In this document: in pieces, positions 8,533 through 30,025 of the stretch
Layout: each line of letters opens with the position of its first letter
Numbering within the stretch: position 1 is the stretch's first letter
Made by a program: the position numbers and the translations under genes
Assembly: GCA_022825885.1 (NCBI GenBank)
Contig: JAJDVY010000048.1
Span: 28,453 to 92,452 of the forward strand
Direction of reading: 5' to 3'
Length of the DNA stretch: 64,000 nucleotides
DNA from: Nitrospirales bacterium
Lineage (GTDB): Bacteria; Nitrospirota; Nitrospiria; Nitrospirales; UBA8639
Notes under the pieces: generated by a model
What the model saw: the letters and a program-made list of their open reading frames with translations, nothing else
Told to the model about the DNA's origin: nothing
Database searches by the model: none

Positions 8533-8618
8533 TGGAGAAGCTGAATGTCTCCGCTCTGCCACTGGAAGTGATATGGCGATGATTGGGGTGCGCTTCCGAC
8601 AGACAACCACCGACGGAA

Positions 8619-8640
8619 CCGGCGGGTTGTAAGCCGCCGG
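8619..8640 (+). other. GC-rich hairpin just before the RND exporter start
   Basis: CCGGCGG and CCGCCGG form a 7-bp stem with an 8-nt loop ending 11 nt before the ATG of the exporter. There is no T run, so it is not a classic terminator; it could affect ribosome access or be part of a repeat. Confidence 0.35.
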
Positions 8641-8651
8641 GCAGCCAAGCC

Positions 8652-10940
8652 ATGAGTGCTGTATTTCTGGAACGCTACACGACATTCATATTACGCTACC
8701 GATGGCTGGTCCTGACGCTGGCCGTAGCGGTGATGGTGGGTCTGGCAGCCGGACTCCAATTCATCATCGTCTCCAACGACTGGCGCGACAACTTCGACAA
8801 AGACAATCCTCATCGCGTGGCATTCGAAGCCTTGGAGGATACCTATACCGCGACCAACGTGGCATTGATCGCGGTGGCGCCCAAGGGGGGGGAGGTCTTC
8901 ACCCGCGAGGCGCTGAGCGCCGTGGAAGAGTTGACCGAAGCCGCGTGGCGCGTGCCTTGGTCCACCAGGGTCGATTCCCTGACCAATTACAACCACACCG
9001 AAGCGGTCGGGGACGACTTGAAGGTTGAGCGGCTCGTGGAGGATGCCGGATCGCTCAATGATGACGACCTCGCCCGGATCAAGGGGATTGCGTTAGGCGA
9101 GATCAGTGTCGCGGGCCGGCTCGTCTCCCATGACGGGCGCGTTGCCGGACTGGTTATCAGTTTCGCCTTTCCCGAGGACCCTGAGGCTGCCCTGACCGAG
9201 GTGATCGACCACGTCCGCGGCCTTCTGGACAAGGCCAGGGCGGACCATCCGGATATCACCTATCACATGACCGGCGACGTCTTCGTGAACCGCATCATGA
9301 CAGACGCGGTTGACGCCGATATGCAGATCCTCGCGCCGGTTGCATTGCTCGTCATCGTGTCCGTCGCCGCCTTCCTTCTGCGCTCTCTGCTGGGTACGCT
9401 GTCCCTTGTCGCCATGCTCATCTTCGTCATCGCCTCGACCATGGGCGTCGTCGGCTGGACCGGCACGCTGCTTAACGCCGCCAACTCCGGCATTCCGATT
9501 ATCATCATGACGCTCGCCATCGCAGATTCGGTCCATATTATCGCGACGACGATGTCCGGCATGAGGCAAGGCCTGGAGAGGGACGCGGCGATTGCCGAAG
9601 CCCTGCGCGAGAATGCCTGGCCGGTGTTCCTCACAACGGTCACGACTATGATCGGATTCCTCAGTCTCAACGCCTCGGACTCTCCGCCTTTTCGGGTCCT
9701 CGGCAATTTCGTGGCGTTTGGCGTGTTCTGCGCCTTCATGTATTCCATGACGCTTCTGCCGGCACTGTTGTTGGTGTTGCCGTTGCGCGCAAATCCCGGA
9801 CGCGCCGGGCGTTCCGCTTTCTTTGATCGCTTGGGGGCCTTCGTCGTCGCGCGCCAAACGCTCCTGCTCTGGTCCATGACCACCGTGGCCATTGTTCTGG
9901 CGGCGGGTATTCCCCGTATCGAGTTGACGGACAACTGGCTGCAGTATCTGGATGAGCGTTATGAATTTCGGCGCGATACGGACTTTGTCATTGACAATCT
10001 GACCGGCATGGAAAACTTGGAATACTCCCTGAATGCCGGGCGCGATGGTGGCATCACCGATCTCGGCTATCTGCGCAAGATCGACGCTTTCGCCGAATGG
10101 TACCGCGCCCAGCCGGAAGTCGCGCACGTCCAGGCCTTTCCGGACATCATGAAGCGCCTCAACAAAAACATGCACGGTGATGACCCGGCCTTCTACCGGA
10201 TGCCCGAAGACTCCGAGCTTGCCGCGCAGTATCTGCTGCTCTACGAGCTTTCGGTGCCCTTCGGCAGCGACCTCAATAACCGCATCGACGTCGGCCGATC
10301 GGCCACGCGCATGACTGTCACCATGAGCAGATTGAATGCTGAGCAGCAGCGCAAGCTCGACGTGCGCGGGCAGGAGTGGCTCCGCGCGAACGGGCCGGAA
10401 CTCGCCACCGGGGGATCGGGGTACAGCCTCGCCTTCGCCCACTTGACCATTAGCAACAACAAAAACATGTTGCAGGGCACGGTCATGGCCATGGCTCTCA
10501 TTTCGCTGATCCTGATCGGGATTTTCCGAAGCCTGCGTCTCGGCCTCATCAGTCTCGTGCCGAACTTCATCCCCGCAGCCATGGCCTTCGGCGTCTGGGG
10601 CTATCTCTACGTCGAAGTGGGGAACGCCGGATCTCTCGTGACCGCGATCGCCTTCGGCACCGTCGTCGACGACACGATTCACTTCATGACCCAGTATCTG
10701 AAGGCGCGTCGCGAGGGCCGTTCCGCACCAGAGGCGGTGCAAACCGCCTTTCGTTCAGTGGGGCATCCGCTGTTTATCACAACCATGATCCTGGTACTGG
10801 GTTTCCTGGTGTTCGCGTCGTCGGGGTTTGCGATCAGTTTGATGCTCGGCCTCCTGGTTGCGCTCACGATCGGCTTCGCGCTGATCTGCGATTTCCTGCT
10901 CCTCCCGCCCCTGCTGATCGCCATCGACCGAAAGGCGTAA
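8652..10940 (+). CDS. RND-superfamily (MMPL type) exporter, candidate sterol/lipid transporter
   Basis: A 762-residue inner-membrane protein with the RND two-fold repeat: one TM helix at about residues 18-38, a periplasmic loop, a cluster of five or six helices (about 235-400), a second single helix, a second large loop and a last helix cluster (about 610-760). Conserved marks are the intramembrane segments IADSVHIIATTM and VDDTIHFMTQYL. It belongs to the COG1033/HpnN-like group that moves lipids such as hopanoids and sterols. The TPR protein after it overlaps by 1 nt. Methylococcus capsulatus BstA, an RND sterol transporter with a TPR partner, is the closest known precedent by architecture. 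ATG 8652 is chosen over a TTG at 8583, which adds a non-membrane tail. Transport of sterols is inferred from context only. Confidence 0.8.
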   Translation: MSAVFLERYTTFILRYRWLVLTLAVAVMVGLAAGLQFIIVSNDWRDNFDKDNPHRVAFEALEDTYTATNVALIAVAPKGGEVFTREALSAVEELTEAAWRVPWSTRVDSLTNYNHTEAVGDDLKVERLVEDAGSLNDDDLARIKGIALGEISVAGRLVSHDGRVAGLVISFAFPEDPEAALTEVIDHVRGLLDKARADHPDITYHMTGDVFVNRIMTDAVDADMQILAPVALLVIVSVAAFLLRSLLGTLSLVAMLIFVIASTMGVVGWTGTLLNAANSGIPIIIMTLAIADSVHIIATTMSGMRQGLERDAAIAEALRENAWPVFLTTVTTMIGFLSLNASDSPPFRVLGNFVAFGVFCAFMYSMTLLPALLLVLPLRANPGRAGRSAFFDRLGAFVVARQTLLLWSMTTVAIVLAAGIPRIELTDNWLQYLDERYEFRRDTDFVIDNLTGMENLEYSLNAGRDGGITDLGYLRKIDAFAEWYRAQPEVAHVQAFPDIMKRLNKNMHGDDPAFYRMPEDSELAAQYLLLYELSVPFGSDLNNRIDVGRSATRMTVTMSRLNAEQQRKLDVRGQEWLRANGPELATGGSGYSLAFAHLTISNNKNMLQGTVMAMALISLILIGIFRSLRLGLISLVPNFIPAAMAFGVWGYLYVEVGNAGSLVTAIAFGTVVDDTIHFMTQYLKARREGRSAPEAVQTAFRSVGHPLFITTMILVLGFLVFASSGFAISLMLGLLVALTIGFALICDFLLLPPLLIAIDRKA

Positions 10941-14625: not shown

Positions 14626-15798
14626 ATGAGCACGATGTCCATTAAAGGGTCGAACGCACCCACCGGTTCATCGCCGCCGCCCGTTTTCGTGACCGGTGCG
14701 GCCGGACACGTAGGCGCCAATCTCGTGCGCCGGCTGCTGGACGACGGCATTCGGGTCCGGGTGCTGCTCAGACACGAGGACAACAATGAAGGCCTGGAAG
14801 GTCTTGACGTTGAACGCCGGTTTGGTGATATCCGGGATTTGGATGCAACCCGGCGTGAGCTTGAAGGTTGTCAAGGCGTCTACCACGTCGCGGCCAAGAT
14901 CTCAACCATCGAAGGCAATCGCGCTCATCGCCGGGAAGTGTTCGACTGCAACGTCGTCGGCACCCGCAACGTGCTGCAAGCGGCGCGGGAGGTTGAAGCC
15001 GGTCGGGTAGTGGTGACGGGCTCTTTTAGTGCGGTCGGGTATGATTTGGATAATCCGTCCGCGCCCGCCAATGAGACGATGCAATTCTATCCCATGGAGC
15101 GCACGATGCCGTACGAGCGCAGCAAGTCGCTCGTCGAGCATGAGTGCTGGCGCGCCGCGGCCAAAGGACAGGATGTCGTAGTGGCAACGTGCTGCGCCGT
15201 GGTCGGGCCAGCCGATTTTTTCCCTTCGCGGTTGGGAAGAGCCTTGTGTGACTATAGCAATCGTAAGCTTCATGCTTACGTTGATGGCGGGTTCGAGTTC
15301 GTCGCGGCGCGGGATATTGTCGAAGGTCATCTGTTGTGTATGCGCCAAGGACGCTCGGGCGAAAAATACATTTTCAGCAGCGAGTACAAAACGATCTCCG
15401 AAATCCTGGACCTGTTCGAGGAAGTCTCAGGCGTTCCGCGACCGTGTCGGCGTATTCCGGCCAACGTGATGCTCGCGTTTTCGGAAATGACGAGCTTCTA
15501 TCTGAGCCGGTTTCACCCGAGCTTCCCTCAGCGTTTCACCCCCGGCGCCATTCGCCTGTTACGCAAACGCTTACACGCCGACGTCGGCAAAGCGACACGA
15601 GAACTCGGTTATCAGCCAACCGGTATCCGCGCGGCGGTTCATGAGGCTTATGCATTTCACTACCACCGCAACGCGATCACGAATCCACTTGCGAAACGCC
15701 CGCGCGTGAACGTCACGGGGCAAAACGCTATAAGACAAGAGGAAAGTCTGATGCTGAACCAAAGCATAGAGATCACTCCCGACGGAGGCTCGGTATGA
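14626..15798 (+). CDS. 3-beta-hydroxysteroid dehydrogenase-like protein (SdmB-like, sterol C-4 demethylation)
   Basis: A 390-residue extended short-chain dehydrogenase: Rossmann motif TGAAGHVG at 23-30 and catalytic Y-x3-K (YERSK) at 163-167, in the NSDHL/3-beta-HSD branch. Residues from about 350 form an extra tail. In Methylococcus the homologous SdmB works with the Rieske oxygenase SdmA, oxidising the C-3 alcohol and decarboxylating C-4 during sterol C-4 demethylation. The next gene here is an SdmA-like oxygenase whose start overlaps this stop (4 nt), which fits the same two-enzyme system. A second ATG nine bases later is an alternative start. Confidence 0.82.
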   Translation: MSTMSIKGSNAPTGSSPPPVFVTGAAGHVGANLVRRLLDDGIRVRVLLRHEDNNEGLEGLDVERRFGDIRDLDATRRELEGCQGVYHVAAKISTIEGNRAHRREVFDCNVVGTRNVLQAAREVEAGRVVVTGSFSAVGYDLDNPSAPANETMQFYPMERTMPYERSKSLVEHECWRAAAKGQDVVVATCCAVVGPADFFPSRLGRALCDYSNRKLHAYVDGGFEFVAARDIVEGHLLCMRQGRSGEKYIFSSEYKTISEILDLFEEVSGVPRPCRRIPANVMLAFSEMTSFYLSRFHPSFPQRFTPGAIRLLRKRLHADVGKATRELGYQPTGIRAAVHEAYAFHYHRNAITNPLAKRPRVNVTGQNAIRQEESLMLNQSIEITPDGGSV

Positions 15799-16895: not shown

Positions 16896-17982
16896 GCGGA
16901 ATTTCCTGTTATCCGCACTGTCGGGCGGCACCCTGCTTGAGGCGGCGGTCATGGTATTGGGGTTTGTCGGCGCGTTGTTTCTGGGTTCAATGCTCCTGCC
17001 CGGACGGCGGGTGACGGGACCGGACGTCGAAGGCCCCTCACCTACCTACACGCTCAACGGCCTCGCCCTGTTCCTGATGACCATGATTGTCGCCGGTCTT
17101 GCCCAAGTCTCCGGCTGGGCTTCTCTTTCAGTGCTGTATACGCACTTTGCCGCTTTATTCGTGGCGGCCAACGGGTTCGCATTCGCGCTGTCCGGCTGGT
17201 TGTATTGGCAGGGAGCCAAGGCCCGGGATGCGCCACCGGGACCGTGGCGGGGGTTTTTCTTTGGAGTGGAGTTCAATCCATCCTGGTTCGGGGTGGATTT
17301 GAAGCTCTTCAGTTACCGTCCTTCCCTCATTGGCCTGGCGTTGCTCAACGCCTCGTTTGCCGTCGTGCAGTATGAAACCTACGGCGGGCTGACTTTGTCG
17401 ATGGCGCTCTATCAGATCTTCACCTTCCTGTACGTGTTCAATTACTTCCAGTTCGAACATGGAATGATCCACACCTGGGATCTGGTCAGTGAGCGATTCG
17501 GATGGATGTTGATTTGGGGAGACTACGTGCTGGTGCCGTTTTTCTACTGCATCGCCGGCTGGTGGCTGATTCACTCATCGGAACCGCTGTCTCCTATCGC
17601 CGTAGCCGCGGTCGTCCTGTTGTTCGTCCTCGGTTTTTGGCTTTTCCGCGGTGCCAACGAGCAGAAGCACCGGTTTAAGCGTGATCCGGGCATCAGGATT
17701 TGGGGGCAACCCGCCCGGTCCTTGGATGGTCGCCTGCTGGTCTCCGGATTCTGGGGTATTGGACGACATCTCAACTATACCGGGGAGATTTGCGTCTACC
17801 TTGCGTTTACCCTGACCACGGGATTCGCATCCTGGGTGCCCTACCTGCTACCCCTGTGGCTGACGGGTTTGTTGTGGCATCGCTCGAGACGTGATGAGCG
17901 TCGTTGCCACGCCAAGTATGGGAAGCTGTGGGGCCGGTATACACAACAGGTGCGTTTTTCGATGCTGCCGTTTGTCTATTGA
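16882..17982 (+). CDS. ERG4/ERG24-family sterol reductase
   Basis: A 366-residue integral membrane reductase with about nine hydrophobic segments. The C-terminal family signature is clear: LLVSGFWGIGRHLNYTGE, then a loop with RRDERRCHAKYGKLW and a final short tail. Members reduce sterol double bonds (C-14, C-7 or C-24) with NADPH. Because CYP51 is the next gene and leaves a delta-14 bond, C-14 reduction is the likeliest role, but the sequence does not settle the bond. ATG 16882 overlaps the oxygenase stop by 14 nt and has GGAG upstream; an in-frame ATG at 16864 is possible. Confidence 0.85.
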   Translation: MPGPERNFLLSALSGGTLLEAAVMVLGFVGALFLGSMLLPGRRVTGPDVEGPSPTYTLNGLALFLMTMIVAGLAQVSGWASLSVLYTHFAALFVAANGFAFALSGWLYWQGAKARDAPPGPWRGFFFGVEFNPSWFGVDLKLFSYRPSLIGLALLNASFAVVQYETYGGLTLSMALYQIFTFLYVFNYFQFEHGMIHTWDLVSERFGWMLIWGDYVLVPFFYCIAGWWLIHSSEPLSPIAVAAVVLLFVLGFWLFRGANEQKHRFKRDPGIRIWGQPARSLDGRLLVSGFWGIGRHLNYTGEICVYLAFTLTTGFASWVPYLLPLWLTGLLWHRSRRDERRCHAKYGKLWGRYTQQVRFSMLPFVY

Positions 17983-17993
17983 GGAGGGCAAGG

Positions 17994-19403
17994 GTGGAAG
18001 ATCGGTCTCACGGTGTGGCAATCTTGCGTTCGGCACAGCCGTCGCCGGCGGCGGCAAAAGCCGTTCCCGAACTTGCGGGCGGGTGGCCGTTGATCGGTCA
18101 TCTGTTGGCTTTTCTCAAGAATCCGATCTCGATGTTGAGCCGCGGCTGGCGCGAGCAGGGTGAACTCGTCCGGTTCCGGCTCGGTCCCCGCGAGTTTGTT
18201 CTCTTCACCGGACCCGAAGCTCACGACTGTTACTTCAGAGCGCCGGAAGATCAGCTAAGCGCCAAAGCCGTGTATCAGTTCACGGTCCCCATCTTCGGTC
18301 GTGGCGTGGCTTACGACGCCTCCCCCGAGATCATGGACGAGCAGCTTGGGTTTTTGTTTCCGGCCCTGCGCGAAGCCGCGATGCGCAGATATGCCCGTGT
18401 CATGTTCGAGGAGACGATGCAGTTGGTTGACGAACTCGGCGAGGAGGGGGTCATCGATCTCTCGCACGCACTGAACGAGCTTACCGTCAAAATCGCCAGT
18501 CGTTGTCTCATTGGAGAGGAAGTTCGGGAGCAAGTGGACTCGGGTTTCGCCGAGGCGTATCACGATCTGCAGAACGGCATCAACGTCCTGGGATTTTTTC
18601 TCCCCAGGCTGCCTATTCCGGCGCATCGGAGTCGAGACCGGGCCCGGCGCAAAGTCGCCGAGATCTTTGGCCGGATCATGGCGGCACGCCGGCTTTCCGG
18701 GGTTGCGCCCGATGATTTCTTGCAGGCGCTCATGCAGGCCCGCTACAAGGACGGCCGCGCTTTGAGTGACGACGAGATAACCGGGATCCTGCTGACGGCG
18801 TTATTCGCGGGGCAACATACCAGTGCGGTGCTCGCAACATGGACCGGTCTGGAGTTGCTGAGGGCGCCCTCCTACTTGGCGCAGATAAGAGACGAGATGC
18901 AGGACGTCTACCGCGAGACGGGAACCGTGAGCCTCGAAGGTCTCAAGAGCCAAGTGGCGCTGGAAAACGCCGTACGTGAGAACGAGCGGCTGCACCCGCC
19001 GTTGATCATCCTGATCCGCAAGGTACTCAAACCCTTGCGCTACAGAGACCATGTCGTGCCCGCCGGCACCCTGGCCGTGGTGTCGCCGGCGGTCGCTCAC
19101 CGGTTGTCTCACGTGTTCGCCGACCCTGAGCGGTTTGCCCCGGAACGTTTTGCCTCCCCCGCATGCGAGCACAAACAACACCACTACGCCTTGATCGGTT
19201 TTGGCGGCGGCAAACACCGATGCATGGGGGAACATTTCGCGTACCTGCAAATCAAGGCGATCTGGACCGTGCTGCTTGACCGCTTCGACTTTCATCTCGA
19301 CTCCGCGTTCCCTGCCCCGAATTACAGTAGCTGGGTGACGGGTCCCAAGACCCCATGCCGGCTCCGTTATCGCCGCCGCTCACAGCCGAGCGTATTCCGG
19401 TGA
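17994..19403 (+). CDS. cyp51: Sterol 14-alpha-demethylase cytochrome P450 (CYP51)
   Basis: A 469-residue P450 that removes the C-14 methyl of lanosterol-type sterols. CYP51 marks are the SRS1 region with PIFGRGVAYDAS, the I-helix AGQHTS (about residues 272-277, with His in place of the usual acidic residue, a CYP51 hallmark), ExxR in ENER (329-332), and the heme loop FGGGKHRCMG with Cys about 410. There is no clear N-terminal membrane anchor. GTG 17994 has GAGGAGGG upstream and starts 11 nt after the sterol reductase; the frame is open further up to 17904 but inside that gene. The stop overlaps the next start (GTGA). Confidence 0.92.
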   Translation: MEDRSHGVAILRSAQPSPAAAKAVPELAGGWPLIGHLLAFLKNPISMLSRGWREQGELVRFRLGPREFVLFTGPEAHDCYFRAPEDQLSAKAVYQFTVPIFGRGVAYDASPEIMDEQLGFLFPALREAAMRRYARVMFEETMQLVDELGEEGVIDLSHALNELTVKIASRCLIGEEVREQVDSGFAEAYHDLQNGINVLGFFLPRLPIPAHRSRDRARRKVAEIFGRIMAARRLSGVAPDDFLQALMQARYKDGRALSDDEITGILLTALFAGQHTSAVLATWTGLELLRAPSYLAQIRDEMQDVYRETGTVSLEGLKSQVALENAVRENERLHPPLIILIRKVLKPLRYRDHVVPAGTLAVVSPAVAHRLSHVFADPERFAPERFASPACEHKQHHYALIGFGGGKHRCMGEHFAYLQIKAIWTVLLDRFDFHLDSAFPAPNYSSWVTGPKTPCRLRYRRRSQPSVFR

Positions 19404-22400
19404 GCGACGCGACTTTCGGTCATTACGACGTCGTCATCGTCGGTGCGGGTCCGACAGGTAGCTTGTGTGCGCTCGCTCACGCACGGAAAGGCGTCCGGGT
19501 CGCTCTGCTCGAAGCCAATCCCAACGCTTCCAAACGAATGGCGGGCGAATGGTTGCATCCGCCTGCCGTCCGAATGTTGCACGACGTCGGGATCAGGCTC
19601 GACACACAGGCCCGCAGCACCACCGGCAAGGGATTCGTGGTGTTCCCGGAAGACCGCTCGGAGCCGATTGTCCTTCCTTATCGTGATGGGTTTCACGGTT
19701 TGGCGTGCGAGCATGCGACGATCGTTTCGAAGCTGCGTGAAGCGATCGCGCGCAATCCGAACGTCGACTATATTCCCTACGCGCGGGTACGTTCGGTCGA
19801 AGACGAGATGGTCACCTTTAGCCGTAACGGCACAGCGGAAACCGTCAGTGCCGTGCGGATTGTGGGTGCCGACGGACGGGCCTCGGTCGTGCGTCGTTCG
19901 TTGGGTTTGTCGATAAAACCGAGGACCTGCTCGCGGATGGTGGGGGTCACGATAAGTGGGGTGGACTTGCCGCTGGAAGGTTATGGGCACGTGCTGTGTG
20001 GCGGGCCGGGTCCCATTCTCATGTATCGGCTGGGAGAGCAATGCGTCCGGGTCATTGTCGATGTCCCATCGGACGGCTGGACACCCGGAGACCGGATTGG
20101 CTTCCTGTCGGACTCGTATGCCGGTTTGTTGCCGGAAACACTCAGATCTGCATTTGTGGAAGCGCTGCAGACCGGGCAATTTCACTCCGCGGCCAATGAA
20201 CTGAGCCCTCGCGTCACGTACGGAAGCCCGCGTCGAGTGCTGATCGGCGATGCGGCTGGGCACTACCATCCCATGACGGCCGTGGGCATGACGCTCGGTT
20301 TCGGCGATGCGCTGACGCTGGCTGAGAGCAAGGACTTTCACGACTTCGTCTCGAAGCGTTTCCAGGCAACCCACACACCGGAGCTTCTCGCCATGGAGCT
20401 CTACGAGGTCTTTGCCGATCACCGGCCCGAGGCAGTGGCGATCAGACGTGCCATCTACCGGCATTGGAGGACAAGTGCCGCGTTCCGCAACCGAACCATG
20501 AGTTTGCTCGCCTGTGAAGACATATCGGTAATCCGTATGAGTTTCGCGGGTGGCGCGATGGTGTTCCGGGCGTTTGCCGGGATGATTCCGCGATCCTGCA
20601 ACCAGTTCGCTTGGCGCCGGGCCCGCGACGTCGTTCATGCACTCACCGTTCGTCTCCTGTGGCTGCTGCGCGGCGTCATGCATCTACACAAGGCGAAAGG
20701 CGAGGGCGGAGAAAAAGGCGATCAAACGCGGGATATCTTGGCTCGCGCGCTTCTGGTCTCCATACCATCGGGCGTGGGTGACTCCCAGCACGTCCGCCCA
20801 AAGGAGGTGACTTCACCGGATGCCGGTCCGGCGTTGAGGAGCGCAAGTGCCCGCCTGTTGAAGCTCCAGGGTGAGGATGGCGCCTGGGAAGGCGAGATGG
20901 TTTGGTGTCCCATGCTCACCGCGCAATACGTGTTGTTGCATCACATTATGGGGCGGCGGCTCGACCCCGACCGGCGACGTCGTGTGCTGCGCTCCTTTGA
21001 GCACACACGTCTCGAAGGAGGCCTATGGAGTCTGCACGAGCACCCGCCACCCAACCTGTTTGTCACCACCCTGGTTTACGTCGCGGCAAGATTACTCGGT
21101 ATTGAACGGGATGATCCGTTAATCGAGCCGGCCGGCCGATTCCTGCAGGCAGAAGAGGTTCTCGGTATCCCGAGTTGGGGGAAATTCTGGCTGGCACTCC
21201 TCAATCTCTACGACTGGCGCGGGGTCAACGCCATTCTCCCGGAACTGTGGGGCTTGCCGCGCCGGATACCGTTACATCCCTCAAATTGGTACTGCCATAC
21301 CAGGCTCATCTACATGGCGATGGCGGCGATTTACCCGCACCGGTTTCAAACGCCCGTCACGTCCGTGATCGCATCGTTGCGAGAGGAACTGTTCCCCCAG
21401 GGGTTTGCCAACGTCGATTTTTCCGCGTCCCGCAATCGCTTGCGGGATGCGGACCTCTACGCGCGTCCCGGTACGTGGCTCCGAGCCGGATATGGATTGG
21501 CGCGGTTGTTTGAACGGTCCCACTCCACGCGCCTGCGCGCCCGGTGCCTGGACGCAATCATCAAGCAGATTAAATGGGAGTTGCAAACCACCAACCATAC
21601 GAGCATCTCGCCGGTCAGCGGGTTTCTCAACATCCTGGCCTTATGGCTGCGTGATCCAAACGATGCCGACTGCCGTCAGGCGCTTGAGCAGTTGGATGGC
21701 TGGATTTGGGAGGACGAGGAGCGTGGCGCGCGAGTCACCGGCGCGAGAAGCAGTTCGTGGGATACCGGCTTCTCCCTGCAAGCCCTGGCAACGGTGCCCG
21801 AATTCGACGGGGCTCAATATGCTCTCCGACAAGGAGCCGGCTTCCTGTGCCGGGAACAGATCGGCACCAGCTTCGAAGGGTTCCGCGAGGCGTATCGGGC
21901 CGATCCTAAAGGCGGCTGGTGTTTCCCCGGGGGCTGGCACGGCTGGCCGGTGAGTGACTGCACCGCGGAAGCGGTGCTGGGGGTCCTTGCCGTCGACCCC
22001 AAGGCCATCAGCGAGACAGCGATTAGCGATGCGATTCAATTCATGCTGCGTAGCCAGAACCGCGATGGCGGTTTTGGCAGCTATGAGGTGCAACGCTCCG
22101 CGGTCGGCCTCGAGTGGTTGAATCCGGCCGAGATGTTTGGCGGCTCGATGACCGAGCATTCCTATGTCGAGTGCACCACGTCTTGCCTCGCGGCGCTCGC
22201 CGCTTGCCGGATGCACTTCCCGCACGTCACGAATCAGGCGGTGCCGGATGCGATCTTGAGGGCTGAAGCCTGGCTTCGACGGACCCAATCCAGCGATGGG
22301 TCGTGGCGCGGCGTCTGGGGCGTTCAGTTCATCTATGGCACCTTCTTTGGCGTCAGGGGGCTGGTTGCCGCCGGGGCCCGTCCCGTCGATCCGGCGTTGC

Positions 22401-22786
22401 GTTTGGCTTGCCGATGGCTGCTGGATCGTCAGCAGAAAGACGGGGGATGGGGCGAACACCACAGCGGGTGTTTGACCGGCCGATACGTTGCGCATGATGA
22501 AAGTCAGGTCATCCAAACCGCGTGGGCGTTGATTGCGCTCCTCGAAGCGGGCGATCCGAATTGGGCCGCGATTTCGCAGGGCGCCCGGTTCTTGCTCAAC
22601 ACGCAGGACGCGGATGGAACATGGCCCAAGCAGGACATGGCCGGGGTCTTTTTTCGCACGGCGTTGTTGGATTACGTCCTGTATCGAAAGTATTTCCCCT
22701 TGCACGCGCTCGGTCTCTACGAGCAGCGTCGCCGGGCCAGGCTGAACCTGTCGGGTCAAACAAAAACGGATAGGCTCCAGGGATGA
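19400..22786 (+). CDS. Squalene epoxidase-oxidosqualene cyclase fusion protein
   Basis: One uninterrupted 1128-residue frame joins two successive enzymes. Residues about 1-430 are a flavin monooxygenase of the squalene epoxidase type: VVIVGAGPTGS near 12-22 and IGDAAGHYHPMTAVGMTLG near 282-300, which corresponds to the GDAxNxxHP SQE motif. After a charged linker (about 430-480) comes a terpene cyclase from about 485 to the end with QW-type repeats and the catalytic VSDCTAE (Asp 853). DCTAE rather than DxDD marks oxidosqualene cyclases against squalene-hopene cyclases. Val before SD is the lanosterol-type state (cycloartenol synthases have Ile). Expected chain: squalene to 2,3-oxidosqualene to a lanosterol-like sterol, at the membrane. 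An ATG at 19355 is an alternative start; GTG 19400 gives the GTGA overlap with cyp51. Confidence 0.93.
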   Translation: MSDATFGHYDVVIVGAGPTGSLCALAHARKGVRVALLEANPNASKRMAGEWLHPPAVRMLHDVGIRLDTQARSTTGKGFVVFPEDRSEPIVLPYRDGFHGLACEHATIVSKLREAIARNPNVDYIPYARVRSVEDEMVTFSRNGTAETVSAVRIVGADGRASVVRRSLGLSIKPRTCSRMVGVTISGVDLPLEGYGHVLCGGPGPILMYRLGEQCVRVIVDVPSDGWTPGDRIGFLSDSYAGLLPETLRSAFVEALQTGQFHSAANELSPRVTYGSPRRVLIGDAAGHYHPMTAVGMTLGFGDALTLAESKDFHDFVSKRFQATHTPELLAMELYEVFADHRPEAVAIRRAIYRHWRTSAAFRNRTMSLLACEDISVIRMSFAGGAMVFRAFAGMIPRSCNQFAWRRARDVVHALTVRLLWLLRGVMHLHKAKGEGGEKGDQTRDILARALLVSIPSGVGDSQHVRPKEVTSPDAGPALRSASARLLKLQGEDGAWEGEMVWCPMLTAQYVLLHHIMGRRLDPDRRRRVLRSFEHTRLEGGLWSLHEHPPPNLFVTTLVYVAARLLGIERDDPLIEPAGRFLQAEEVLGIPSWGKFWLALLNLYDWRGVNAILPELWGLPRRIPLHPSNWYCHTRLIYMAMAAIYPHRFQTPVTSVIASLREELFPQGFANVDFSASRNRLRDADLYARPGTWLRAGYGLARLFERSHSTRLRARCLDAIIKQIKWELQTTNHTSISPVSGFLNILALWLRDPNDADCRQALEQLDGWIWEDEERGARVTGARSSSWDTGFSLQALATVPEFDGAQYALRQGAGFLCREQIGTSFEGFREAYRADPKGGWCFPGGWHGWPVSDCTAEAVLGVLAVDPKAISETAISDAIQFMLRSQNRDGGFGSYEVQRSAVGLEWLNPAEMFGGSMTEHSYVECTTSCLAALAACRMHFPHVTNQAVPDAILRAEAWLRRTQSSDGSWRGVWGVQFIYGTFFGVRGLVAAGARPVDPALRLACRWLLDRQQKDGGWGEHHSGCLTGRYVAHDESQVIQTAWALIALLEAGDPNWAAISQGARFLLNTQDADGTWPKQDMAGVFFRTALLDYVLYRKYFPLHALGLYEQRRRARLNLSGQTKTDRLQG

Positions 22787-25209: not shown

Positions 25210-27246
25210 TCAGGCGGGCAGTTTGCGTCTTTGCTCGGCGATTCGGAACTTCATCCTCTTGCTCGGGGACATCGACGGAAACGGGTTGAACCGGAGCTTG
25301 TAGTTCGCAGGCGACACCTCAAGCGTAAAGTAATGCGCGACCATGAGCAGGTTGACGGCCAGTTGCAGTTCCACCCACCGGAAGCCGAGGCACGTATGTG
25401 TGCCCAGTCCGTATGGCGCGTATCCGGGGCTGAGGTGCTCGTTACGCGAAGGCAGATAGCGATCGATATCGAATGAGAAAGGGTTCGGGAAGACGTCTTC
25501 CATGTAATGCGGGGCCGTCTGAGCAATGAAGACGCGTGTCCCGACCGGCAGTTCGTAGTCTTCGATTACGCACGAATTCATCACGTTGCGAAGAGACATG
25601 GGCACGATGGGATACAGACGCATGCACTCCATGATGAAGCGGTTCGTGACGTCGATCTCTGACTTGGCGAAGCCTTTCTTGTCCGGATCGGGGCCGTCGA
25701 ACAGGGCGTCAGCCTCGCTTCGGATCCGGCTATAGAGTTCAGGGTGCGACGCCATGGCGTAAAGCGCGAAGGCCAAAGCATCGCCGAGGTACATGCTGGC
25801 AAGCATGGGTGCCGAAAGAGAGAATCCCATGTTCGACTCGGGGAGGAATTGCGGGTCGCTGGTGTAGAGGCTGAGCAGGTCATCCGTAAGGGTGCGCGGG
25901 CAACCGGCCCGCTGGGCTGGCGTGTGGACGCTCTGGACCCTTTGCACCGCCACGTCGATAGCCTTGGCAGGGCGTTTCATATCCGGGGTATGCAGCAGGA
26001 ACTTGGGCAGTATTTTCGCGACGTGGGTGGTGAGCGCCCGCTCCTTGAATTTTATCAGGTCTTCCACAATGTCCTGCGAATCTATGTTGAGAACGAGGGG
26101 GGATATTTGTGCGTTGATCATGCGCCGGCACAGGCGGACCGCATGCACGGAGGAGCCCACTTTCCAATCCCCCATAAATGCGCGGATATGTCCGTAGAGA
26201 GGATTCAACGAGCCTTCCAGCCTTTCGCGGGAGTAGCCCGGTTGCATGGCCTTGCGTAGACGGAAGTGTTCGGCGCCGTCGAGGGCGGGTATCAGCCCTG
26301 AGGCGCCGTAGACCTTCTCGATATCGGTGAAATAGTCCCTGGATCTCAGGTACATGCGTCCGTTCCGGTGGACCCACCGGTTGACCTTGGCCCCGGAGAG
26401 GAAGGTCATGGGTTGCTGGAACGGCGGGCGGATCTGAAATACCGGCCCGTATTTTTTCGTCAGATCTGCAAAGAGCGCGGGAATGTTGCCCTTGCGTACA
26501 TGCGGATTGATCAGGAGCTTTGGCAGAGAGACGCTCGGAATCTCCTTCCTGACCAGGGAGGAATGTCGAAACAAGGGGCCGATGAGGGTCTGGGTGACTG
26601 CATTGGCGATGGACCGGCCGATCAAATCTGTCTTGCAGATCGTCTGGATCCATTTTTCTGACTCGTCATCGAGCTGGAAGATGAAGCGAAAGACGTCACA
26701 CGTATTAACGAGGCAAATTACGATGATATCTCTCGGATCGGGAATTTCCTTCGTGAAGATAGCTCTGCTGATACGCGCTTTGATGAATTCGCTGGCAGTG
26801 CCTTTTTGGATGGTGCCGTGCAATTCTGTCTGCCACCCCGTACGAGGCAGCGTCCAGAAATCGCCGTCGTGGTGTTCCAGGATCTTCAAGTCAACCAAGC
26901 GGTCCAGAGTCAAATCAATGATTGACTCCGCGCGTGCGGCGAACCGTTCAATCCAGAACCGGGTGTTCCGTTGAGTTGGTTCGCTGGCAATCTCTTTCAG
27001 GATGGGGTCCAGGGTGGGATTGCCCGTTTCGGTCCGGTCCACAAGAAACAGGGATTCCATGTCCGTGTCGATGCGCGACAGGAGGGAGAGTTCCGCGAGC
27101 ACTGCGCCGCCGACGGCACAGTTCAAGTTCCAGCCGGGCACTTGATGAAAGTAGCCGGTCTCCTGATTAAGGAGCATCAGGATCAACTCTTCGGGCAAAC
27201 TAAGCGTTGGGGGTGTCAGGCTTTCTTTAGCTTCAGCAATCGCCAT
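25210..27246 (-). CDS. GPP34 (GOLPH3-like) domain-cytochrome P450 fusion
   Basis: A 678-residue protein. Residues about 15-230 match GPP34/GOLPH3: LSLPEELILMLL, GGAVLAELSLLSRID, LVDRTETGNPTLD and the later DPRDIIVICLVNTCDVF. From about 250 to the end it is a P450 with ExxR (ECMR, 540-543) and heme loop YGLGTHTCLG with Cys 619 (Tyr replaces the usual Phe). The I-helix (about 482-496, SMYLGDALAFALY) lacks the usual (A/G)Gx(D/E)T pair, so oxygen activation may be unusual or the chemistry an isomerase/dehydratase type. Eukaryotic GPP34 proteins bind phosphatidylinositol 4-phosphate; the bacterial domain may dock the P450 at the membrane. It is first in a minus-strand run and divergent from the next FAD gene. 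Confidence 0.85.
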   Translation of the reverse strand: MAIAEAKESLTPPTLSLPEELILMLLNQETGYFHQVPGWNLNCAVGGAVLAELSLLSRIDTDMESLFLVDRTETGNPTLDPILKEIASEPTQRNTRFWIERFAARAESIIDLTLDRLVDLKILEHHDGDFWTLPRTGWQTELHGTIQKGTASEFIKARISRAIFTKEIPDPRDIIVICLVNTCDVFRFIFQLDDESEKWIQTICKTDLIGRSIANAVTQTLIGPLFRHSSLVRKEIPSVSLPKLLINPHVRKGNIPALFADLTKKYGPVFQIRPPFQQPMTFLSGAKVNRWVHRNGRMYLRSRDYFTDIEKVYGASGLIPALDGAEHFRLRKAMQPGYSRERLEGSLNPLYGHIRAFMGDWKVGSSVHAVRLCRRMINAQISPLVLNIDSQDIVEDLIKFKERALTTHVAKILPKFLLHTPDMKRPAKAIDVAVQRVQSVHTPAQRAGCPRTLTDDLLSLYTSDPQFLPESNMGFSLSAPMLASMYLGDALAFALYAMASHPELYSRIRSEADALFDGPDPDKKGFAKSEIDVTNRFIMECMRLYPIVPMSLRNVMNSCVIEDYELPVGTRVFIAQTAPHYMEDVFPNPFSFDIDRYLPSRNEHLSPGYAPYGLGTHTCLGFRWVELQLAVNLLMVAHYFTLEVSPANYKLRFNPFPSMSPSKRMKFRIAEQRRKLPA

Positions 27247-27334
27247 CAGCTTTGCCCTTCCTGTATTCCTGCGATATCATAAAAAAGATACCCTCTACTG
27301 AAGGGATGATAAGTGTACCCCTATGGCTTGGGCG

Positions 27335-27357
27335 AGGCAAGGCAAGGCAAGGCAAGG
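27335..27357. repeat. AGGCA pentanucleotide tandem repeat in a divergent promoter region
   Basis: Four full copies of AGGCA plus a partial fifth, between the divergent GPP34-P450 and FAD-reductase genes, 65 nt upstream of the latter's predicted start. Length changes here would shift promoter spacing. Confidence 0.8.
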
Positions 27358-27422
27358 TCTTGACGGGGACATTGGTGTTGCTAAAATGCTATAAGTCTTC
27401 GGAAAGGAATAATTTGATATTC

Positions 27423-28508
27423 ATGGATTCACGACGTGAACATGACGTGTTGATTGTAGGTGGTGGACCCGCAGGGTCTACGTGCGCCCGATTCGCAAGA
27501 AAGCACGGTCTGAATGTGGCCTTGATTGAGCGAACTGGCAAATGCCACGTGAAGAGGACCAGCGCGGGAATCTTTGATCATACCTGGCCCGCACTCGAAC
27601 TGTCGCCCCACGAATACCCATACCCAATGCGCTCACCCAATGCTTCCGTATTCAGAACCCTCAATAACGACAAAGAATTGACGACGATATTTAAGATTAT
27701 TGTGGACAAACTGAATCGGTACGTCTATTTGCCCAATCGAGATGAATTTGACAATTGGTTGTTGTCATTAGCCAATCAGGATGGTTGTATCATCATTCGA
27801 GATCATACTGTGCGACCCGAAGATATTGAGTTCAACAACAAGTCATATGCAGTTCGCGTCGGGAACGAGATCCATACCGCGCCGTTTCTTGTCGGCGCTG
27901 CGGGCACCTTCTGTCCTGTCTATCGACGATTTTTTAATAACACGAGTTCATGGCCCGGTCAAATGACGCTTCTTACGGAAGCAGAAGTACCTGAGCGGGA
28001 ATACAGCGGCCCATCTTACGTCAGCTATTTTAACTTCATGGGGGGGGGGGTATTCGGATGGACGTACATCATAGGTGACGGGAGGCTTCACATAGGCACG
28101 GCTCGACTTTCGAGACCACCAAAACTTAAAAAGAAAGATATACTGTTCGATGAGTTTGTGGACTTTATACGTTCGAAAGGGTACTTGGCACGGAACTTTG
28201 ACCCCAAGCAATACCATGTGAGCAGTGGGATTATTCGAGCGTTCGCTAATCGTCCGATGACGACACCTGATGGAAGCTGCCACGTTATAGGGGATGCGGC
28301 GGGGCTGCTTCAGAATGATTGCTATACTGGCATAACGAATGCCATCTTCTCTGGCCGCTATTGTGCCGATGCGATAGCACAGGCTGAAACAAGCCCGCAT
28401 ATCCGAAAGAATCTCAATCGATATTTCTTCCAGGACGTTCTGCAAGACATGATTGGCAACGTTGTACCTGCCTTCAAATATCGCCGGTCGTTTTTGCCTG
28501 TCAAGTAA
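27423..28508 (+). CDS. FAD-dependent oxidoreductase, geranylgeranyl reductase family
   Basis: A 361-residue flavoprotein: DVLIVGGGPAGSTCARFA at residues 8-25, the FLVGAAGTF strand, and CHVIGDAAGLLQNDCYTGI near 295-313 (GD motif for FAD). The family reduces isoprenoid double bonds or acts on similar lipids. Base composition is clearly more AT-rich than the sterol genes, as in the desaturase that follows, suggesting separate acquisition. The codons for FMGGGVFGW contain a run of 11 G (28039-28049), prone to slippage; one base more or less would truncate the protein near residue 210. ATG 27423 is chosen since the upstream open frame runs through the tandem repeat. Confidence 0.82.
   Translation: MDSRREHDVLIVGGGPAGSTCARFARKHGLNVALIERTGKCHVKRTSAGIFDHTWPALELSPHEYPYPMRSPNASVFRTLNNDKELTTIFKIIVDKLNRYVYLPNRDEFDNWLLSLANQDGCIIIRDHTVRPEDIEFNNKSYAVRVGNEIHTAPFLVGAAGTFCPVYRRFFNNTSSWPGQMTLLTEAEVPEREYSGPSYVSYFNFMGGGVFGWTYIIGDGRLHIGTARLSRPPKLKKKDILFDEFVDFIRSKGYLARNFDPKQYHVSSGIIRAFANRPMTTPDGSCHVIGDAAGLLQNDCYTGITNAIFSGRYCADAIAQAETSPHIRKNLNRYFFQDVLQDMIGNVVPAFKYRRSFLPVK
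28039..28049 (+). repeat. Homopolymer G11 inside the FAD reductase gene
   Basis: Eleven consecutive G residues, read as part of ATG GGG GGG GGG GTA. Such a run is a typical slippage site and also a common place for sequencing error. Confidence 0.9.
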
Positions 28509-28594: not shown

Positions 28595-30025
28595 ATGGCG
28601 ATTTCGGGAAATATCCATCTCGGTGGTTCTTCGGCGGATACTCTTTCGTTGAGTCAAAAACACAAACATATCGTCATCGCAGCACGAAAGACACTTGGTT
28701 TTTTATTGACCATTAACTTTCTGGTCTTTTGGGCTGTGCCGATTTTTCTTCAGGGGTGGGTTTATAAATCTTTTTTACGTCGGTTTATCCACCCGATTTA
28801 TAATCTGGTTGACAAGTCTGCACGGCTCCGTAAATTTGCGTTTCGATATGTATATCGTGAGCAGTTTCTTGTTGATTATTTTGCCACTGCAGTATTCTTT
28901 TTGGCGGGTTTTCTCATTTCGTTAACAGTTGTGTTCTCCTGGCAGATTTCCTTCGGCTCGCTACCCTGGTGGCTTATAGCCATGTATTTTTTCTGGTGGG
29001 TAGGTTTTGGTGGTCGGAGCATGGGTGCCGCATATACGTTCGCACACCGTGAGGGACACGCAGCCGGAGGCTGTCTGTATCGACACTGGATTCGCAAATA
29101 CATAGGAAACTTTTTCGAGAATTGGATCGGTTCTTTTTACGGAAACGTACCTTATAACTTTTCGACTGCACATGTTCTGTTACATCACAGACTGAACGGC
29201 GGCAAAGGTGATCCCATCTACATGTGGGACGTCGACCGAACCAAGTTCGGCGACGTTATGCTCTATCAATGGCGTATTTTCATCTATATGACAGGTTGGG
29301 GAGGTCTTCACGAATTTGGAAAACAGAGATATATCCCGGTGATGGACAAGGCCTATCGTCAACTCCGCAAGGGTATGATCATTTACTGGCTGATACTTCC
29401 TTCTACGATAGGCATTTGGCTATGGGCGACAGGCAGTAATCCGGCATCTATCGGTTTATTCCTGTTTTTTGTTTATTTCCAGAGCCTCTTTGCAATGTCT
29501 TTTTTTATGGTCGTCATCAACATAGGTTTTCATGGCTTTATCGAGTGTGATGCTGACGGGAAATTCATCCCTTGCATTTGCTCAAGCACGATCATTGGTG
29601 GCGATGACGACTCATTTGGTGAAAATGATCATATGGCGCATCACAATTTCGGATACGTCTCACATGATCGTCTATCAGCTCACCAGGCTACGCAGCATTC
29701 GTTGTGGGCTCGGCATCAAGCCTCTGTTTTTCAAGGGCTCTCGACTATTGAATTCGGAATGAATATCTATTTTGGAAGATTCAAGAAACTGGCTGAACAG
29801 CACTATCTGGATTTAACCGGCAACTTGAATGTTGACGAGATTGCGGAATTGCTTAAGACACGGGCAACACGAAAAGAAATGGACTACGAGGACTACGAAT
29901 TTGGGTATCTTTTCAACTTGGAATCCACCGTCAGTCAATTAGTTCGAAATAACATTTGCCCGAATGAACAAAAAGCCTACGTTTATCAAGCGTCCCGACA
30001 CCACTGTCAACTTCCTGGATTATAA
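28595..30025 (+). CDS. Membrane di-iron fatty acid desaturase/hydroxylase family protein
   Basis: A 476-residue integral membrane protein with three histidine boxes: HREGH (about 151-155), HVLLHH (about 193-198) and DHMAHH (about 347-352). These bind the di-iron centre of the FA_desaturase superfamily. Hydrophobic pairs occur at about 35-55, 95-135 and 260-310. Expected reaction: O2-dependent desaturation or hydroxylation of a lipid chain; the substrate could be a fatty acid, carotenoid or sterol side chain. It follows the FAD reductase after 86 nt and shares its low GC content. Confidence 0.85.
   Translation: MAISGNIHLGGSSADTLSLSQKHKHIVIAARKTLGFLLTINFLVFWAVPIFLQGWVYKSFLRRFIHPIYNLVDKSARLRKFAFRYVYREQFLVDYFATAVFFLAGFLISLTVVFSWQISFGSLPWWLIAMYFFWWVGFGGRSMGAAYTFAHREGHAAGGCLYRHWIRKYIGNFFENWIGSFYGNVPYNFSTAHVLLHHRLNGGKGDPIYMWDVDRTKFGDVMLYQWRIFIYMTGWGGLHEFGKQRYIPVMDKAYRQLRKGMIIYWLILPSTIGIWLWATGSNPASIGLFLFFVYFQSLFAMSFFMVVINIGFHGFIECDADGKFIPCICSSTIIGGDDDSFGENDHMAHHNFGYVSHDRLSAHQATQHSLWARHQASVFQGLSTIEFGMNIYFGRFKKLAEQHYLDLTGNLNVDEIAELLKTRATRKEMDYEDYEFGYLFNLESTVSQLVRNNICPNEQKAYVYQASRHHCQLPGL

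What the first reader, a model, noticed from the sequence alone, without database searches (positions are those of the whole stretch)
19400..22786. Squalene epoxidase fused to oxidosqualene cyclase in one bacterial protein
A single frame carries the SQE motifs (GxGxxG, IGDAAGHYHP) and then the OSC motif VSDCTAE with QW repeats. The two enzymes catalyse consecutive steps, and the intermediate 2,3-oxidosqualene is reactive and membrane-bound, so fusion could channel it. In known bacterial sterol clusters these are separate genes; I do not know of a characterised fusion.
Basis: partly seen in the sequence, partly recalled or inferred. Interest (0 to 1): 0.95.

Follow-up and report, generated by a model that had tools for sequence, protein, structure and literature searches.

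The report
Fused sterol-starting enzyme in sponge bacteria
A Nitrospirota bacterium, likely a marine-sponge symbiont, encodes a single protein joining the two enzymes predicted to start sterol synthesis, squalene epoxidase and oxidosqualene cyclase; the same fused gene occurs in genomes assigned to eight phyla, one such protein was already described in 2020, and whether the joining helps hand over the intermediate is untested.

The parts
19400..22786 (+). Fused squalene epoxidase - oxidosqualene cyclase gene, GTG start, 1128 codons plus stop (ORF open from ATG 19355)
19418..20698 (+). SQE half (residues 7-433 of 1128), structurally aligned to human SQLE residues 122-571
20699..20815 (+). Linker (residues 434-472): a conserved short helix 438-450, then a variable low-confidence stretch 459-466; the larger region 446-493 of the 1143-aa form is 48 aa in 60 of 86 fused proteins
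20816..22744 (+). OSC half (residues 473-1115) with CHTR (632), HGWPV (847) and DCTAE (853); aligned to human lanosterol synthase residues 71-727
17904..19403 (+). CYP51-like sterol 14-demethylase (P450), probable GTG start 17994
   Evidence: 6mcw, Cytochrome P450 51, 355 bits
16864..17982 (+). Sterol C14 reductase (ERG4_ERG24), probable ATG start 16882
   Evidence: PF01222 231 bits; 4quv 241 bits
15795..16895 (+). SdmA-like Rieske oxygenase (predicted C4 demethylation); ATGA overlap with the preceding gene
   Evidence: NF052579 404.6 bits, below cut-off 600
14626..15798 (+). SdmB-like NAD-dependent dehydrogenase (predicted C4 demethylation)
   Evidence: NF052578 292.7 bits, below cut-off 600

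Best explanation
The gene encodes one polypeptide made of a squalene epoxidase joined to an oxidosqualene cyclase, which is predicted to turn squalene into 2,3-oxidosqualene and then likely into lanosterol at the membrane. It is the last gene of an operon whose other products are predicted to take that sterol through C14 demethylation (CYP51), C14-15 reduction (ERG24) and C4 demethylation (SdmA/SdmB). The proposed benefit of the joint is proximity: both catalytic domains would sit on the same membrane patch in 1:1 ratio, so that oxidosqualene re-enters the neighbouring cyclase before it diffuses away or meets another cyclase. I favour hand-over through the membrane rather than a closed tunnel. 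Shown: fusion, folds of both halves (by prediction and sequence), catalytic motifs, operon, breadth. Inferred: activity, product, benefit of the tether.
For: Both domain families over their Pfam cut-offs; nearest solved structures are human SQLE and human lanosterol synthase. The whole-protein model has pLDDT 85.1 and pTM 0.87, under 50 only at 1-4, 285-288, 459-466 and 1120-1128; a pTM this high for two domains suggests, but does not prove, one fixed mutual placement. Catalytic D853, C854, E857 and H633 are invariant in the 69-row alignment. The valine two places before the catalytic Asp is in 78 of 78 fused loci (77 with V[ST]DCTAE, plus L039 with VSDCTGE); PMC7074536 uses a key valine to call MsbE a lanosterol cyclase. 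Operon order kept in 51 of 62 loci with at least 5.2 kb upstream. In G000 this is the only strong SQE (the other match is 24 bits), and the only other match to the cyclase family is SHC-type (29% identical). One squalene synthase is present.
Against: I saw no assay. Relatives keep SQE and OSC as separate neighbouring genes within the same family, so the covalent joint is dispensable. The tether sequence is variable. Shielding from SHC is not a general reason: 27 of 58 fused genomes searched also hold a strong SHC-type cyclase, 31 do not. TIGR03463 (2,3-oxidosqualene cyclase) scores 723.6 bits, under its cut-off of 851. The HGWPV context has a His that, from memory, is typical of plant cycloartenol synthases, so parkeol or a mixture is possible. 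The two most divergent fusions outside the main group differ: L114 keeps the whole operon, but L111 has none of the four genes in the 18 kb looked at.
Confidence: 0.62

Rival explanations
1. Bifunctional but without any hand-over: the fusion only fixes 1:1 expression of two enzymes that work independently, and persists because it travels as one transferable block.
For: Split pairs nest inside the fused group and two of three lie behind Sdm-like and CYP51 genes in the same order. Neighbouring genes here overlap by a few bases anyway, so loss or gain of a stop easily interconverts the states. Many standalone SQEs end at the linker, and they intermix with fused ones on the SQE tree (14 label changes; some singles are visibly truncated or frame-broken predictions).
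Against: Linker length is held (48 aa in 60 of 86) while its sequence varies, and pTM 0.87 suggests a defined placement.
Confidence: 0.27
2. Both halves are active, but the product is not lanosterol: parkeol, a mixture or another triterpenol that feeds specialised sterol-like compounds.
For: PMC7074536 proposes the msb cluster for the sterol core of sarasinosides. A Planktothrix plasmid carries a 56.8%-identical standalone OSC beside several P450s. TIGR03463 cut-off not met.
Against: CYP51, ERG24, SdmA and SdmB homologues are in the operon; Val two places before the catalytic Asp in 78 of 78 loci.
Confidence: 0.1
3. Artefact: an assembly join or missed stop between two adjacent genes.
For: Relatives with two separate neighbouring genes exist; two of 80 loci have broken frames.
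Against: Same joint, one frame, in 78 of 80 loci from many assemblies named to eight phyla, including records of 1.6 and 3.1 Mb.
Confidence: 0.01

Closest known systems
MsbE of the msb cluster, gammaproteobacterial symbiont of the sponge Melophlus (PMC7074536; passages read)
   Same: Described as a bifunctional squalene epoxidase/sterol cyclase with the lanosterol-type valine, in a cluster with SdmB/SdmA-like, C14 reductase and C14 demethylase genes.
   Different: Different phylum; no sterol methyltransferase found in the window's genome, while msbF is one. MsbE's letters were not compared directly (P0072, 'uncultured bacterium', 1153 aa, 73% identical, may be it, unverified).
Clusters of steroid genes (CSGs) of Ircinia symbionts (PMC9531527; passages and the CSG section read)
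   Same: ERG24-CYP51-LSS in order, 115 of 537 MAGs, 11 classes of 10 phyla including Nitrospirota, with evidence of horizontal transfer.
   Different: The paper calls the last gene LSS; 'fused' and 'fusion' do not occur in its main text, although its LSS alignment is 3765 positions long, the size of the fusion.
Fused SMO/OSC homologs and Group 1 bacterial OSCs (PMC10070321; passages, outline and one section read)
   Same: Same architecture, named in one Methods phrase; four OSCs from demosponge metagenomes fall in an all-bacterial group.
   Different: The fusion is trimmed away there and 'fused' occurs once in the main text; that paper is about sterol methyltransferases.
Methylococcus-type OSC and SQE pair (G776, locus L130; name inferred, genome unnamed)
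   Same: Adjacent OSC and SQE genes on one strand.
   Different: Opposite order (OSC first), two proteins, 45% and 30% identical.

Membership tests
Squalene epoxidase (PF08491 with FAD_binding_3) | Pfam SE and FAD domains over the gathering score; nearest to SQE among solved flavin monooxygenases | tested here: met
Squalene epoxidase (PF08491 with FAD_binding_3) | Epoxidises squalene with FAD, O2 and a reductase | not testable with these tools
   needs enzyme assay
Squalene/oxidosqualene cyclases (TIGR01787, PF13243, PF13249) | Family cut-offs; DCTAE catalytic motif; grouping with OSC rather than SHC | tested here: met
   (497.3 bits, cut-off 322.7), (3 SHC rows apart at 100; D853 invariant)
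NCBIfam TIGR03463 2,3-oxidosqualene cyclase | Curated cut-off 851 bits | tested here: not met
   723.6 bits; so not filed under this model
Lanosterol synthase | Val at the product-controlling position before the catalytic Asp | tested here: met
   V in 78 of 78 fused loci and in the window
Lanosterol synthase | Lanosterol as product | not testable with these tools
   needs expression and GC-MS
MsbE-type bifunctional epoxidase/cyclase | N-terminal SQE and C-terminal cyclase in one chain, in a cluster with SdmB/SdmA-like, C14-reductase and CYP51 genes | tested here: met
   with the description
MsbE-type bifunctional epoxidase/cyclase | Direct sequence similarity to MsbE (MT026193.1) | not tested
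   I did not look the record up; no call compared its letters

The most novel reading that the evidence does not exclude
A natural channelling enzyme for the gateway of sterol synthesis: both domains dock with membrane faces side by side so that oxidosqualene passes directly from epoxidase to cyclase, and this module has spread with its operon through at least eight phyla of sponge symbionts, repeatedly splitting and recombining its halves at the linker.
Probability: 0.2. Interest if true: 0.8.

Novelty: new member of a known kind. Interest (0 to 1): 0.5.

Why it matters
SQE and OSC are the two committed steps of sterol synthesis, and direct transfer of oxidosqualene between them is an old question. 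A ready-made natural fusion, with natural split relatives as controls, makes that question testable in one expression experiment. The gene family also matters for reading sterane fossils attributed to sponges, because it marks likely sponge-dwelling bacteria with the genes to make sterols from squalene; 47 of 53 fusion-bearing genomes searched also encode a sterol methyltransferase match, although the window's own genome shows none.

Tried and rejected
Shielding of oxidosqualene from a co-resident SHC as the general reason for fusion: rejected as general, because 31 of 58 fused genomes have no strong SHC-type match (27 have one, 290 bits or more; my count; most completeness values are not given); all 3 split genomes there have one.

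Half-swapping inside the window's genus: a first careful tree rejected one OSC clade for six Nitrospirota rows (AU p 9e-19), while their SQE halves lay on one side of a branch (70/74). In one search (quick method, another choice of outside rows, six more same-genus rows of which three are identical to rows already there) 10 of 12 OSC halves came together with P0036, only the identical pair L072/L091 stayed apart, and the rejection weakened to p 0.002. The group was named. So exchange is only suggested.

One origin of fusion: the AU test against all fused rows as one clade gave p 1e-5 (quick tree), with long branches at the base; one fusion with several fissions, or several fusions, both remain open.

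Viral contigs: no relative. Plasmids: one place of 113 covers 80% of the query, and it is separate genes, OSC first, then squalene synthase, then SQE (Streptomyces).

Sponge origin rests on a few record titles (Spongia_Bin9, lac_sponge), the three sponge papers, and bin-name prefixes recalled by me. A paper search on five names from the titles (listing only) was mixed: an Arctic sponge paper for one family, hydrothermal-plume and dinoflagellate papers for others. Habitats of G genomes are unknown.

Selection: 80 of 171 relatives were returned. SQE tree: 44 of 86 fused halves, 46 of the 96 SQE-length singles, two shorter ones (P0124, P0125) and 4 reference SQEs; some singles (such as P0132) are frame-broken predictions. 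OSC tree: 40 fused, 9 single, 3 SHC. The structure alignment used 69 rows that I chose; L043 was left out by choice, and L070, L035, L031 and L027 because the first start-motif search gave wrong starts.

Full report
What is there. One search shows a single + strand frame from 19355 to 22786. The likely start is GTG 19400, overlapping the stop of the P450 gene as GTGA; the product is then 1128 aa, as in the 99%-identical database protein P0001. Pfam and NCBIfam find SQE (SE, FAD_binding_3) followed by the two squalene/oxidosqualene cyclase domains. TIGR01787 is met (497.3 bits, cut-off 322.7); TIGR03463 is not (723.6, cut-off 851). The best solved relatives are human SQLE for the first half (2e-25, next match 2e-9) and human lanosterol synthase for the second (416 bits).

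Whose gene. The window's genome G000 has 2.38 Mb in 50 contigs, completeness 95.5. Its same-genus genomes G197, G276 and G065 carry fusion proteins whose two halves are identical to those of loci L003, L005 and L072, whose records are titled Nitrospira or Nitrospirales; hence Nitrospirota.

Operon. Upstream on the same strand lie SdmB-like, SdmA-like, C14-reductase (ERG24) and CYP51-like genes. The two Sdm models are matched below their NCBI cut-offs, so I call them Sdm-like. Across the related loci, 51 of 62 with at least 5.2 kb upstream keep exactly this order and strand; 7 of 62 show none of the four upstream of the fusion and 4 show some.

Breadth. The 120 listed of 1749 hits are 1107-1179 aa. 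In genome contigs, 80 of 171 relatives were returned; 78 of these 80 have one frame of at least 1050 codons. NCBI ranks of their titles: Pseudomonadota 49, Chloroflexota 8, Nitrospirota 6, Actinomycetota 5, Gemmatimonadota 3, Binatota 2, Acidobacteriota 2, Bacteroidota 1, unranked 4. Nearly all are MAGs, so single assignments may be binning errors. Whole-genome surveys: Nitrospirota 7 fused of 295, all in the window's genus, where 3 of 10 members lack it; Acidobacteriota 3 of 297; Gammaproteobacteria 3 fused and 3 with unfused matches of 369; Alphaproteobacteria 6 full-length matches and one cut-off match of 385; Dehalococcoidia 17 matches of 245, of which 13 are near full length and 4 partial. 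Five of these full-length matches are reported with one in-frame TGA (G276, G1371, G1612, G322, G1584); in G276 the frame over the protein itself is open (L089, 1143 codons), the others were not checked one by one. The centres of the last four surveys were chosen because they carry the gene, so these are not unbiased rates. The family is thus patchy within phyla and similar across them (47-85% identity to the window among the rows), as expected for horizontal spread, which PMC9531527 reported for Ircinia clusters.

Fused and split forms. Many standalone SQEs of about 440-490 aa end at the linker and intermix with fused SQE halves (14 label changes). In two genomes of the order of G512 (from the Acidobacteriota survey), three gene copies have SQE and OSC as consecutive genes in the same order with the stop inside the linker region and OSC in another frame; two of them (L158, L159) lie behind Sdm-like and CYP51 genes, without an ERG24 match. 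In the combined tree these three sit inside the fused group (starred set of 15 rows), which fits secondary fission. At the base lie two fused rows (L111, L114) and two unfused ones: a Planktothrix plasmid, and gammaproteobacterium G814, whose SQE ends the usual operon at a contig end while its OSC stands alone on another contig, so that its unfused state is inferred. L114 keeps the whole operon; around L111 only the fusion was found. Whether fusion arose once or more often is open.

Function. Catalytic Asp, Cys, Glu and the His equivalent to human His232 (numbering recalled) are invariant in 69 rows, and valine stands two places before the catalytic Asp in 78 of 78 fused loci. One search shows that Mohanty et al. 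used a key valine to call MsbE a lanosterol cyclase. In its own genome this is the only strong SQE; the other cyclase is SHC-type; one squalene synthase is present. No sterol methyltransferase was found there, although 47 of 53 fusion genomes have a match, so the window's organism would make side chains without added methyl groups, unless the gene lies in the missing few percent.

Prior work. Mohanty 2020 (PMC7074536, passages) describes MsbE as a bifunctional squalene epoxidase/sterol cyclase. Brown 2023 (PMC10070321, passages, outline and one section) mentions fused SMO/OSC homologs in Methods. Kelly 2022 (PMC9531527, passages and one section) describes the clusters without the words fused or fusion. 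Paper searches (listings, of which I opened the papers named here) showed no characterised fusion; only open-licence PMC papers are held, and Hoshino and Gaucher 2021 was not available.

Verdict. This is a Nitrospirota member of an MsbE-type fused SQE-OSC family, likely a bifunctional lanosterol-type synthase, with channelling an open and now well-posed question.

Noticed in passing
25210-27246 (-): A single frame joins an N-terminal GPP34 (Golgi phosphoprotein 3-like) domain to a cytochrome P450, another unusual fusion beside the sterol genes; matches over 30% identity lie near the fusion in about 15 of 80 related loci, perhaps by the P450 part alone.
   Followed up: no
27252-28508 (+): Geranylgeranyl-reductase family protein (TIGR02032 99.7 bits, below its cut-off of 158.8); the bacterial sterol C-24 reductase Bsr belongs to this family (PMC12004948, passages), so it may reduce the sterol side chain here, where no sterol methyltransferase was found.
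   Followed up: partly
   Followed up: partly
L126 (Planktothrix agardhii plasmid p2): Standalone OSC 56.8% identical to the window's, with a separate SQE-like monooxygenase, squalene synthase and several P450s, and transposases at one side: a cyanobacterial triterpenoid or sterol cluster.
   Followed up: partly
G340 (locus L076 genome): Besides the fusion there is a second OSC-like cyclase in a 653-codon frame.
   Followed up: no
8583-10940 (+): MMPL/RND transporter with a sterol-sensing-domain match, also near the fusion in five of the six Nitrospirota-ranked loci L003, L004, L005, L040, L072, L021; candidate lipid exporter.
   Followed up: no
28595-30025 (+): 476-codon protein that looks like a membrane desaturase by eye, without a Pfam or NCBIfam match, in a stretch of lower G+C (0.45).
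   Followed up: no
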